Shown in pieces: positions 17,944 to 20,825 of a DNA stretch of 64,000 nucleotides (positions within the stretch are counted from its first letter, which is position 1; each line of letters starts with the position of its first letter). The notes beneath the pieces are model-generated. The model worked only from the letters and a program-made list of their open reading frames with translations, had not been told where the DNA came from and ran no database searches. The DNA comes from Candidatus Electrothrix communis. GTDB lineage: Bacteria > Desulfobacterota > Desulfobulbia > Desulfobulbales > Desulfobulbaceae. Position numbers and translations under genes: made by a program. Where the stretch lies: the NCBI GenBank assembly GCA_030644725.1, contig CP130629.1, positions 434,001 to 498,000 on the forward strand, read 5' to 3'.

Positions 17944-18027
17944 ATGGATACAGCTGTACATAATAGATTAGTCTCCTTTATCTGGTCCATCGCCGATGAT
18001 GCCCTCAATATTCCCCTACTTTGTTGA
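17944..18027 (+). pseudogene. Remnant of type I restriction methylase HsdM, N-terminal 27 residues
   Basis: From the ATG at 17944 the frame reads MDTAVHNRLVSFIWSIADD and then runs into an unrelated tail and a TGA at 18025. The sequence (H/N)N+(L/I)VSFIW(S/G)IADD is the characteristic beginning of HsdM-type N6-adenine methylases. The rest of the gene (about 480 residues) is missing. It joins a TPR fragment directly, so the locus is a deletion scar. Confidence 0.7.
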
Positions 18028-18284
18028 GGCTGAACAAAAACAACGTGCAAGCCAACGGAAACCTTGACATATGCTATGCCTTTTTAGGGCAACGAAAAAA
18101 GGCTTTAGCTTTTTTTGATCAGGCCTTGGAGATTGATGCGACATATGAACCTGCAAAGACAAACATGGCCGCTGTGCTGTCGTTGAAGGAAGGCGAAAAA
18201 TTATCAGATAATCAAACCAAAACGGTTGAATACTGCAGAGAGGTTGTTGAACAGATGGACGATAACAACAACCAGCGGCAGTAG
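18021..18284 (+). pseudogene. Tetratricopeptide-repeat fragment
   Basis: The 87-codon frame contains one recognisable TPR unit: NLDICYAFLGQRKKALAFFDQALEIDATYEPAKTN, with the usual A8, G/Y11 and A20 pattern. It has no proper start (an in-frame TTG only) and overlaps the HsdM remnant in another frame. It looks like the C-terminal end of a larger TPR protein whose 5' part was lost. Confidence 0.65.
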
Positions 18285-18471
18285 CCTGAAATATTATCGA
18301 GATCTGAAGAACTCTCTTGATACCGCGTTTGATGAAGGACGTGCGAAAGGACGGAAAGAACAGAAGCTTGAGATCGCCAGGGAAATGCTGGCAGAGGGAG
18401 AACCGGTGGAAAAGATAGTGAGATTTACCGGGCTTGAGCCTGCGGTTGTGGAGGAATTGAGGGGGAATTAG
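18283..18471 (+). pseudogene. C-terminal tail of a PD-(D/E)XK (Rpn-like) transposase-associated nuclease
   Basis: The segment SLKYYRDLKNSLDTAFDEGR followed by a charged helix and REMLAEGEPVEKIVRFTGL is typical of the C-terminal tail of Rpn/PD-(D/E)XK 'nuclease family transposase' proteins. The catalytic domain is absent. It begins abruptly where the TPR fragment ends, which suggests a recombination junction near 18283. Confidence 0.65.
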
Positions 18472-18538
18472 GGGGCTGTGACCATAATTAACTCCTTGGC
18501 CGTCAGCGCTATCGCAAAATACAGTAAGGAAAAACAAT

Positions 18539-19729
18539 ATGAACAACCCGAAGAGGATAGATCTACAGCCCATGAAAGAACTAAAACTGGCAGGGACAAT
18601 CCCATTGGTTCCCGCTGTTAGTCTTGATGATGCCCCTTGCTGAGGGCCAAAACCTGATCCCAGGTCGGGGATCCACGATTTACCCGGATACGCCCTCCAG
18701 CCCTATGTTGCAGGGTTTCTAGAAACAGCTGCCGGTGCTGTCCCCAGAGTCAAGACCGTGTTGGGGTTCCGGGATCGTCTGGGAACGATCCGGGCACGTA
18801 CCGGCATTACCCGCAACCGCTACAAGGTCAATCCAGGCTTATATGGGGTGGGGAGTCCTTCCCCGGAGTCACCGGTGTTTGTTACCGCCAACTACAAACT
18901 CAGTTTTGATGGGCTGCGCAGGGAATTAACTGGCCTGGACGGTTGGATACTGGTGGTGGATACCAGGGGCATCAATGTTTGGTGTGCAGCGGGCAAGCGA
19001 ACTTTTTCCACGGATGAGGTCGCTTGGCAGGTGCGACAAAGCGGGCTGGAGCGGGTCGTCTCTCACCGGGAGGTAATTCTGCCCCAGTTTGCGGCCATCG
19101 GTGTCGCCCTGCATGAGCTGAAAAAGCAATGTGGATTCAAGGGCGTTTTCGGGCCGATCCGTGCCGATGATATTCCGGAATTTATGCGACAGAACCGCAA
19201 AGCGGACGAGTCCCAGCGCTCGGTCACCTTTACCCTGGCTGAACGGCTGACCCTGGTCCCGGTGGAAATCATACTTATCTGGAAACAATTTCTCTTGGCA
19301 GCCCTTGTCGGTTTTATCCTTTCCGGTATCGGCCCGGATATCTATTCCCCGGCTGCGGCCTGGGCCAGAGGCTGGACAGCTGTCAATGCCACAGCACTGG
19401 CTGTCTTGACCGGTGCCTTGGCTGTCCCCACTCTGCTGCCCTGGATTCCGGGCCGTCAGTTCTGGCTCAAGGGAGCCCTGACCGGCGCAATTGGGGGCAT
19501 GGCCTATCTGTTGACTCTTATGGCGGAAGCCGGGCTTGGGGAAAAAATCGGAATTTTGCTCTGGATTATGGCCGGGTCATCCTATATGGCGATGAATTTT
19601 ACCGGAGCAACCCCCTTTACCTCCCTTTCCGGGGTGGAACAGGAAATGCGCAAAGGGTTACCGATCCAGTGCGGCAGCGTCCTCTTTGCTCTGCTGCTCT
19701 GGATTCTCTCTCCCTTCATAGGAGTATAA
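18539..19729 (+). CDS. hgcA: HgcA corrinoid membrane protein for mercury methylation, putative selenoprotein
   Basis: HgcA passes a methyl group from its cobamide cofactor to Hg(II). The cap-helix motif INVWCAAGK (Cys149, the expected lower axial ligand of cobalt) is intact, preceded by SPVFVTANYKLSFDGLR. Five membrane spans follow (about residues 235-396). hgcB starts 4 bases downstream. The frame starts at ATG 18539 after TAAGGA, and codon 35 (18641-18643) is TGA, directly after Cys34 and before GPKP. The conserved N-terminal part (ETAAGAVPRVKT...) lies after the TGA with no ATG, GTG or TTG before GTG 18758. So the TGA is probably read as selenocysteine; a nonsense mutation or sequencing error is the alternative. 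Length is 396 residues. Confidence 0.9.
18656..18673 (+). promoter_or_regulatory. Putative bacterial SECIS hairpin in hgcA
   Basis: GATCCC (18656-18661) and GGGATC (18668-18673) form a perfect 6-bp stem with loop AGGTCG. The loop begins 18 nt after the TGA at 18641-18643. As I recall it, the E. coli fdhF SECIS has an AGGUCU loop 17 nt after its UGA, in which the second and third loop bases matter for SelB. Spacing, size and loop bases all fit, although the bulged U of fdhF is absent. Confidence 0.75.
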
Positions 19730-19733
19730 AACT

Positions 19734-20027
19734 ATGCGTGATTTTCGATATATTGACGGTGCCGCCATTCTCAAACTGAACGAGCAGGCCTGTATCGGCT
19801 GCGGTATTTGCGTAACCGTATGCCCGCACCGTGTTTTCACCCTGGGTAAGAACAAGGCATCAATTACAGATTATAATGGCTGCATGGAATGCGGGGCCTG
19901 CGCCACCAACTGCCCGACCAAGGCCATTTACGTCAACCCAGACGACGGCTGCGGCTGCGCCGTCCTGATCATCAACAGATGGCTGTCCAGGATCATGAAA
20001 AAAAGAGTCGATTTGGGCTGCTGTTGA
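19734..20027 (+). CDS. hgcB: HgcB ferredoxin-like protein of the mercury methylation pair
   Basis: HgcB is thought to return electrons to the cobalt of HgcA. The 97-residue product has two 4Fe-4S motifs, CIGCGICVTVCP and CMECGACATNCP, a further cysteine pair CGC, and the C-terminal vicinal cysteines (LGCC) that are a family hallmark. AGGAG precedes the start, and only 4 bases separate it from hgcA, so the two are cotranscribed. Confidence 0.93.
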   Translation: MRDFRYIDGAAILKLNEQACIGCGICVTVCPHRVFTLGKNKASITDYNGCMECGACATNCPTKAIYVNPDDGCGCAVLIINRWLSRIMKKRVDLGCC

Positions 20028-20096
20028 ACAAAGAGTGATGATCAGCGATGCGGATGCGAGTGCGAGCCCTGGATCGAAATGGTGGTCTACAAGCTG

Positions 20097-20825
20097 TTAC
20101 GAAAAATCGCAGACAAGCGGGGCGTGATCGGAAAATATAACGTCAGGAATGAAGAATTTCTCCACTGTCAGGTCCGGGCTATAAAGAATGAAATCCAGCT
20201 GACGTTTCGGTGAGCGGCTCGGGTGAGAGGGTTGGCCTTGATCGTTGGCATTGCGGAGATGGGTTGCAGCAAGAAAGAGTTCGAGTTCTTGGTCGCCCCA
20301 CAGGACATTGAAGTCTCCTGCCACGATAACAGGGCCCTGCGTTGTTTTTACCAATTTATACAGTTGCTGGAGCTGGCTTTGTCTGTTGTAATAGGTCAGG
20401 GAAAGATGGACGAGGAAAACAGTCAGGTTTGCTGTTTTGGCCTCAATGGCAAGCCGTTTGATCCCTTTGCTGAAAAAATGAAACTGATGATCAAGAAACT
20501 TTTCCTTGCTCAGGAGAGCATTGCCCTGTTTGGCAAGGACCGGAACTCGTCGGGGCAGGGAGCCACAACGGTATTTTGATTCAACGATATGATCATACTC
20601 CAAGCGACGAGCCAGTAATTCTGCCTGACAGCAGTTTCCTGTTCGGAAAGAACCGGAATCGACTTCCACCAGCCCGACAAGGTCAGGAGCCAACCTGCTG
20701 ATAAATTCAGTAATTCGTCGATAATTCTCTGTTGAGCGCTTCAAATATCCCGCATAGGGAACCGGCAAATGGAATTGGGTTCCGATGCCGGTCCCATAGC
20801 GGATATTGTAGAGGAGGAAACGCAA
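20097..20825 (-). CDS. Endonuclease/exonuclease/phosphatase family protein
   Basis: The 242-residue protein has the DNase-I-like fold motifs: LLYNIRYG at the start, LVEVD (metal-binding Glu), VHLSL, VAGDFNVLWGD and the C-terminal SDHAPLVCDF. The substrate (DNA, phospholipid or sugar phosphate) cannot be told. It starts 2 bases after the pcnB stop, so it is translationally coupled to that gene. Confidence 0.87.
   Translation of the reverse strand: MRFLLYNIRYGTGIGTQFHLPVPYAGYLKRSTENYRRITEFISRLAPDLVGLVEVDSGSFRTGNCCQAELLARRLEYDHIVESKYRCGSLPRRVPVLAKQGNALLSKEKFLDHQFHFFSKGIKRLAIEAKTANLTVFLVHLSLTYYNRQSQLQQLYKLVKTTQGPVIVAGDFNVLWGDQELELFLAATHLRNANDQGQPSHPSRSPKRQLDFILYSPDLTVEKFFIPDVIFSDHAPLVCDFS

What the first reader, a model, noticed from the sequence alone, without database searches (positions are those of the whole stretch)
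18539..18760. HgcA appears to be a selenoprotein: in-frame TGA35 with a SECIS-like hairpin
The hgcA frame starts at ATG 18539 after TAAGGA and meets TGA at 18641-18643 between Cys34 and Gly-Pro-Lys. It stays open with conserved HgcA-like sequence (GFLETAAGAVPRVKTVLGF), and no start codon exists between the TGA and GTG 18758. GATCCC-AGGTCG-GGGATC begins 12 nt after the TGA and its loop is 18 nt after it. Bacterial SECIS elements use this spacing and a G at the start of the loop; as I recall, E. coli fdhF has AGGUCU. From memory many HgcA-like proteins have a CCGP-type motif here, so Sec would replace the second Cys of a vicinal pair near the mercury-handling enzyme. I know of no described selenocysteine HgcA.
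Basis: partly seen in the sequence, partly recalled or inferred. Interest (0 to 1): 0.95.

Follow-up and report, generated by a model that had tools for sequence, protein, structure and literature searches.

The report
Selenocysteine form of mercury-methylating protein HgcA
This bacterium's mercury-methylating protein HgcA is made by reading a stop codon as selenocysteine, which is real and widely conserved in its relatives but was already predicted in the literature in 2023; close relatives suggest that the much-studied laboratory version of the enzyme may be missing the same selenium-bearing tail.

Summary
hgcA (ATG 18539 to TAA 19729) has an in-frame TGA at 18641-18643 (codon 35, APC-U-GPK) and a hairpin 12 nt downstream. 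The single-sequence fold is no better than shuffles. The proof is comparative. Of 139 distinct HgcA loci, 49 have TGA and 46 have Cys (TGT/TGC) at the same codon; the rest lack the motif or were not classed. TGA loci keep a hairpin at +13 to +30/31 with GG at +20/21 (44/49, against 1/46 in Cys loci). In a 29-sequence subset 172/174 stem pairs are kept, with compensatory changes. The genome has tRNA-Sec(UCA), selA, selB and selD. UGA is also an ordinary stop in hgcB. Sec insertion is close to certain. The novelty claim fails: Haft & Gwadz 2023 predicted Sec in HgcA and HgcB, and a 2026 review lists HgcA with motif 'CU'. A less obvious consequence: all 20 readable Pseudodesulfovibrio HgcA genes carry this UGA, 22 codons before the position where the 338-aa ND132 reference HgcA begins. 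The reference enzyme probably lacks a Cys-Sec tail. The tail's function (Hg handling) is inferred.

The parts
18539..19729 (+). hgcA, mercury-methylation corrinoid protein with N-terminal Cys-Sec tail (396 aa with TGA35 read as Sec; TAA stop)
   Evidence: translation; NCBIfam NF040863 HgcA_corrinoid 413 bits, E 6.7e-124, from residue 68 on; alignment of 75 full-length homologues
18525..18530 (+). TAAGGA, possible ribosome-binding site for ATG 18539 (alternative start ATG 18572, Met12)
   Evidence: sequence; nearest relative shares only Met12
18641..18643 (+). in-frame TGA codon 35, read as selenocysteine (motif APC-U-GPK)
   Evidence: 49 loci with TGA and 46 with Cys codon at the same site
18656..18673 (+). 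bacterial SECIS hairpin GATCCC-AGGTCG-GGGATC
   Evidence: conserved in TGA loci and not in Cys loci; 172 of 174 pairs kept in 29 loci with compensatory changes
18974..18997 (+). NVWCAAGK cap-helix motif; Cys149 (18983-18985) equals ND132 Cys93, the corrinoid-cobalt ligand
   Evidence: invariant in the alignment; role from PMC7305189 and PMC11588087
19734..20027 (+). hgcB, dicluster ferredoxin with C-terminal Cys-Cys and ordinary TGA stop; Cys (not Sec) in its GCGC motif
   Evidence: NCBIfam NF040864 106 bits, E 6e-31

Best explanation
hgcA at 18539-19729 is a true HgcA gene whose UGA35 is decoded as selenocysteine by SelB and tRNA-Sec, directed by the hairpin 12 nt downstream. The product carries a Cys34-Sec35 pair on an N-terminal tail about 22 residues before the position where the ND132 reference protein begins. 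Shown by comparison: the Cys/Sec exchange at this codon, the conserved SECIS, and the machinery in the genome. Inferred (about 50%): the Cys-Sec pair is a soft-metal thiol/selenol pair that takes part in handling Hg(II) or CH3Hg+ next to the corrinoid centre, as the C-terminal Cys-Cys pair of HgcB is thought to do. The confidence given is for Sec insertion.
For: TGA in frame with conserved protein on both sides. 49 distinct loci with TGA and 46 with TGT/TGC at exactly this codon, the flanking Cys34 and Gly36 invariant in 75 aligned proteins. Local hairpin energy -9.55 against -4.37 kcal/mol in TGA and Cys loci (p 3e-12), and z against synonymous recoding -1.75 against -0.25. Stem pairs 172/174 in 29 loci, partner slid by one gives 110-116; pair 14-29 occurs as A-U, C-G and U-A, and pair 15-28 as C-G and U-A. 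tRNA-Sec with anticodon UCA, 74.8 bits; selB 374 bits, selA 629 bits, selD 343 bits, itself with an in-frame TGA. 45 of 50 genomes of related loci have tRNA-Sec above cut-off. Same TGA and hairpin in an independent genome of the genus. UGA is an ordinary stop in the adjacent hgcB, which argues against a changed genetic code.
Against: No protein or 75Se evidence. Single-sequence folding is not significant. The exact start codon is not settled. Many HgcA lack the tail, and the ND132 construct without it was active in E. coli lysates (PMC11588087), so the tail is not essential for basic activity and its role is a guess.
Confidence: 0.94

Rival explanations
1. The UGA is a real stop: a 34-aa leader peptide is made and HgcA starts again downstream, for example at GTG 18758, giving a 323-aa protein.
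For: Gene callers see exactly this ORF, and the NCBI HgcA model begins at residue 68. The ND132 reference protein lacks the tail and works.
Against: The sequence between TGA and GTG is conserved protein, shared with 46 loci that have Cys instead of TGA and are open throughout. Cys34, the codon-35 Cys/Sec and Gly36 are invariant in 75 proteins. The hairpin is kept only where the codon is TGA.
Confidence: 0.03
2. Sequencing error or pseudogene: TGA stands for TGC/TGT or the gene is decaying.
For: One base distinguishes TGA from TGC/TGT.
Against: Single-contig genome; 49 loci from independent genomes share the TGA; the rest of the gene is intact, and the same-genus copy differs mainly at third codon positions.
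Confidence: 0.01
3. Sec35 serves redox chemistry, not metal transfer: Cys34-Sec35 forms a selenenylsulfide that is cycled by thiol reductants and keeps the corrinoid or HgcB thiols reduced (compare the C-terminal Gly-Cys-Sec-Gly of thioredoxin reductases, from general knowledge).
For: Vicinal Cys-Sec followed by Gly on a tail. Most known selenoproteins are redox proteins.
Against: The corrinoid is thought to be reduced through the HgcB clusters (PMC11588087). No redox partner gene was looked for or found here.
Confidence: 0.25

Closest known systems
Selenocysteine HgcA (NF040863, motif 'CU', example WP_250697417.1), Haft & Gwadz 2023 J Bacteriol, listed in PMC13188914
   Same: Same family, same Cys-Sec dipeptide, predicted by Cys/Sec alignment
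   Different: Nothing found that separates this gene from that class. The original paper is not held, so its member list and start sites could not be compared
HgcA of Pseudodesulfovibrio mercurii ND132 (338 aa, the biochemical reference; model 9a0b)
   Same: Same corrinoid and membrane domains: VIA-align Z 21.9, 321 residues, rmsd 5.7, 50% identity
   Different: The reference begins near window residue 57, after the Cys-Sec motif; close congeners carry the UGA upstream
HgcB with Sec in the GVGU motif (ND132 Cys73 position)
   Same: Also a Sec at a mercury-handling position of the HgcAB pair; seen here in 21 loci
   Different: Different protein and clade; in this sample never together with Sec-HgcA. 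The window's HgcB has Cys there
CFeSP large subunit (PF03599; 2ycl, 2h9a)
   Same: Corrinoid domain fold (Z 17.6, rmsd 1.3 over 128 residues)
   Different: No membrane domain like HgcA's, no Cys-Sec tail; a different enzyme of the Wood-Ljungdahl pathway

Membership tests
HgcA (NF040863) | score above the curated cut-off of the HgcA model | tested here: met
   413 bits against cut-off 275
HgcA (NF040863) | N(V/I)WCAAGK cap helix with the cobalt-ligand Cys | tested here: met
   N146-K153 with Cys149; N146, W148-K153 invariant in 75 homologues
HgcA (NF040863) | C-terminal five-helix membrane domain | tested here: met
   predicted model, five long helices in 233-394, aligned to 9a0b along the chain
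HgcA (NF040863) | hgcB next to it | tested here: met
   19734-20027, 106 bits against cut-off 99
HgcA (NF040863) | mercury methylation activity | not testable with these tools
   needs culture and assay
bacterial selenoprotein gene | in-frame UGA aligned with Cys in homologues | tested here: met
   49 TGA, 46 Cys loci at the same codon
bacterial selenoprotein gene | SECIS hairpin just downstream with G in the loop, conserved | tested here: met
bacterial selenoprotein gene | selA, selB, selC, selD in the genome | tested here: met
bacterial selenoprotein gene | selenium in the protein | not testable with these tools
   needs 75Se labelling or mass spectrometry
Sec-HgcA of Haft & Gwadz 2023 | 'CU' motif in an NF040863 protein | tested here: met
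   Cys34-Sec35; motif as tabulated in PMC13188914

The most novel reading that the evidence does not exclude
The reference enzyme of the field, HgcA of P. mercurii ND132, is itself a selenoprotein whose first 50-60 residues, including a Cys-Sec pair, were cut off by gene calling at a UGA. The mutagenesis numbering, the published structural model and the E. coli-expressed complex would then all describe a truncated protein. I could not read the ND132 gene here, nor check whether Haft & Gwadz already said so.
Probability: 0.75. Interest if true: 0.72.

Novelty: new member of a known kind. Interest (0 to 1): 0.42.

Why it matters
Selenium binds mercury more tightly than sulfur, so a Cys-Sec pair in the enzyme that makes methylmercury bears on how Hg(II) is delivered and CH3Hg+ released. 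It could also link selenium supply to methylmercury formation in sediments. In practice, gene callers and mutagenesis or expression constructs that begin after the UGA omit this tail. The Sec form is not a curiosity: it is the main form in one large HgcA clade (Desulfobulbales and Pseudodesulfovibrio in this sample).

Tried and rejected
(1) Hairpin as stand-alone evidence: rejected, z 0.19. (2) UGA read as Trp or a changed code: rejected; the aligned residue is Cys in every open homologue of the motif class, tRNA-Sec is present, and hgcB ends in TGA. (3) Read-through of the hgcB TGA (20025-20027) into a 61-codon frame with CGCECE: the frame is not conserved in other loci. In the nearest relative the sequence differs right after the stop and only the last ~155 nt match; these overlap the antisense 20097-20825 gene. 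No Pfam match. Rejected as coding. (4) Viral contigs: no relatives. (5) Finding ND132 itself among 36 Pseudodesulfovibrio genomes by published residue numbers: none fits all. (7) Solved structures by sequence: only CFeSP subunits; the profile search at 1e-20 found none. (8) Predicted fold: the tail (residues 31-40) has pLDDT about 70; no coordinates are returned, so its distance to the corrinoid site could not be measured. (9) The original Haft & Gwadz paper and its 2025 sequel are not held; prior art is taken from the review and the PNAS paper.

Full report
OBSERVATION. The window lies in a single-contig genome of 4.85 Mb (window = C1:434001-498000). hgcA begins at ATG 18539 after TAAGGA and meets TGA at codon 35; read as Sec the frame runs on to TAA 19729 and gives 396 residues. 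The NCBIfam HgcA model scores 413 bits (cut-off 275), and the next gene, 19734-20027, is hgcB (106 bits, cut-off 99). As a single sequence it folds no better than shuffles, so the case must rest on comparison.

COMPARISON OF THE CODON. A scan of genome contigs gave 80 loci, and a search of 258 genomes of the order gave more; 40 further stretches were taken out. After removing duplicates there are 139 distinct HgcA loci. At the codon aligned with TGA35, 49 have TGA, 46 have TGC or TGT, and the remaining 44 lack the motif or were not classed: three have CUPP and three are cut short. No other residue occurs at the site in the motif class. In an alignment of 75 full-length proteins Cys34, residue 35 (Cys/Sec) and Gly36 are invariant and Pro41 nearly so, although the tail is otherwise variable. 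The nearest relative (same genus, 91% identical core) has the same TGA and an identical hairpin. Its differences fall mostly on third codon positions on both sides of the TGA, but it does not share Met1, only Met12. This excludes a base error or a decaying gene and leaves the start codon slightly open.

THE SECIS. In the 45 nt after the codon, TGA loci carry a hairpin at +13 to +30/31 with GG at +20/21 in 44 of 49; Cys loci have GG there in 1 of 46 and no common hairpin. Local folding energy is -9.55 against -4.37 kcal/mol (p 3e-12); against synonymous recoding the mean z is -1.75 against -0.25. In 29 loci chosen by clade, 172 of 174 stem cells pair; sliding the partner by one gives 110-116. 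Pair 14-29 is seen as A-U, C-G and U-A and pair 15-28 as C-G and U-A. The PR(S/A)G protein motif typical of TGA loci (PPxS in most Cys loci) is probably imposed by the hairpin.

MACHINERY. tRNA-Sec with anticodon UCA (74.8 bits, gathering score 47), selB, selA and selD (itself with an in-frame TGA) are present. UGA is also an ordinary stop: hgcB ends with it. Of 50 genomes behind related loci, 45 have tRNA-Sec above cut-off, so Sec decoding is general in this group; Cys-HgcA genomes have it as well.

DISTRIBUTION. On a quick tree of 138 HgcA cores the TGA state needs three changes: one clade of 42 rows (Desulfobulbales with Desulfovibrionaceae rows), one clade of 6 in another family of the order with a shorter tail (SCUGPKIPPRAG), and one Desulfovibrio row. 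A CUPPK variant with a hairpin at a similar place occurs in Desulfuromonas-like loci L058 and L081 and in L096, and CUPP in L229. HgcB has TGA at the ND132 Cys73 position (GVG-U) in 21 loci, none of which has Sec-HgcA, while all 44 Sec-HgcA loci with a readable HgcB have Cys there. HgcB-Sec is one clade, so the exclusion is a pattern and not a statistical result.

PRIOR ART. A 2026 review (PMC13188914) tabulates HgcA (NF040863) as a selenoprotein with motif CU, example WP_250697417.1, and HgcB with GVGU, citing Haft & Gwadz 2023. PMC11588087 also cites that prediction. The original is not held. The kind is therefore known, and the finding's novelty claim fails.

THE REFERENCE ENZYME. ND132 HgcA is described with Cys93 as cobalt ligand and a corrinoid domain from residue 15; its length of 338 aa is from general knowledge. 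In window numbering the same Cys is 149, so ND132 residue 1 equals window residue 57. The deposited model's chain starts at window residue 66, which fits ND132 residue 10. In 21 hgcA loci of 36 genomes of the genus of L050 (labelled Pseudodesulfovibrio), 20 are readable through the tail and all 20 carry the UGA (CUGP or CUDP) with the hairpin; L197 is cut at the contig end. The codon at 'residue 1' in ND132 numbering is GTG in many of them, in the sequence VDGFVDTP, with 338 codons to the stop in several. Published ND132 residues fit these proteins well but none exactly, so ND132 itself was not found. If ND132 had Cys, gene callers would have extended the ORF to about 395 aa. I therefore expect an upstream UGA there as well, and a missing Cys-Sec tail in the protein that was mutated, modelled and expressed. 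This is inference until the ND132 locus is read.

HOW IT PROBABLY WORKS. Shown by comparison: UGA35 is decoded as Sec. Inferred: the tail offers a vicinal thiol-selenol pair near the corrinoid domain. HgcB's C-terminal Cys94/Cys95 is proposed to bring Hg(II) and carry CH3Hg+ to Cys73 (PMC7305189). The HgcA pair may take the role of docking, exchange or exit ligand; selenol has higher affinity for mercury and faster exchange (general chemistry). It cannot be essential in all HgcA, since many lack it and the tail-less ND132 construct made MeHg in lysate. A purely redox role is the main rival. The predicted model places the tail with moderate confidence (pLDDT about 70-86 for residues 21-50), but no coordinates were available.

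VERDICT. A real selenoprotein gene, a new member of a known kind. Interest is moderate; it would rise if the ND132 reading proves right.

Noticed in passing
L052, L042, L085, L034, L046, L064, L053, L055, L059, L062, L063, L067, L072, L074, L075, L078, L079, L080, L082, L088, L090 (hgcB after hgcA): HgcB with in-frame TGA in GVG-U-A at the ND132 Cys73 position, a residue essential for methylation; one clade, never together with Sec-HgcA in this sample.
   Followed up: partly
L178-L196 and L198 (20 Pseudodesulfovibrio hgcA loci): All readable congeners of ND132 carry CU(G/D)P with a SECIS-like hairpin upstream of the start used for the 338-aa reference protein.
   Followed up: partly
L058, L081, L096, L229: CUPP(K/V) variant of the tail with TGA outside the main clade; a hairpin at a similar place was seen in L058, L081 and L096.
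   Followed up: partly
20025-20212: The frame after the hgcB TGA stop stays open for 61 codons with CGCECE; its 3' part overlaps the gene 20097-20825 on the minus strand and it is not conserved as a frame.
   Followed up: yes
L046, hgcB: A second in-frame TGA, KENASC-U-DSGCC, near the C-terminal Cys pair in addition to GVG-U; possibly a second Sec, possibly an error.
   Followed up: no
L132 (own genome C1:1791388-1792317): selD of this genome is itself a Sec gene (GLARTCG-U-AAK) with a downstream hairpin; a further selD-like match at C1:1480453-1481394 is split in two pieces.
   Followed up: no
L095 / L027: A Cys-type hgcA with an in-frame TGA inside the core (open frame ends after about 41 codons from residue 68); possible error, pseudogene or further recoding.
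   Followed up: no
18021-18471: Upstream of hgcA are short frames in two registers (TPR-like piece and an AREMLAEGEPVEKIVRFTGL-type end); the region just before hgcA differs completely from the same-genus relative, suggesting a recent rearrangement.
   Followed up: no
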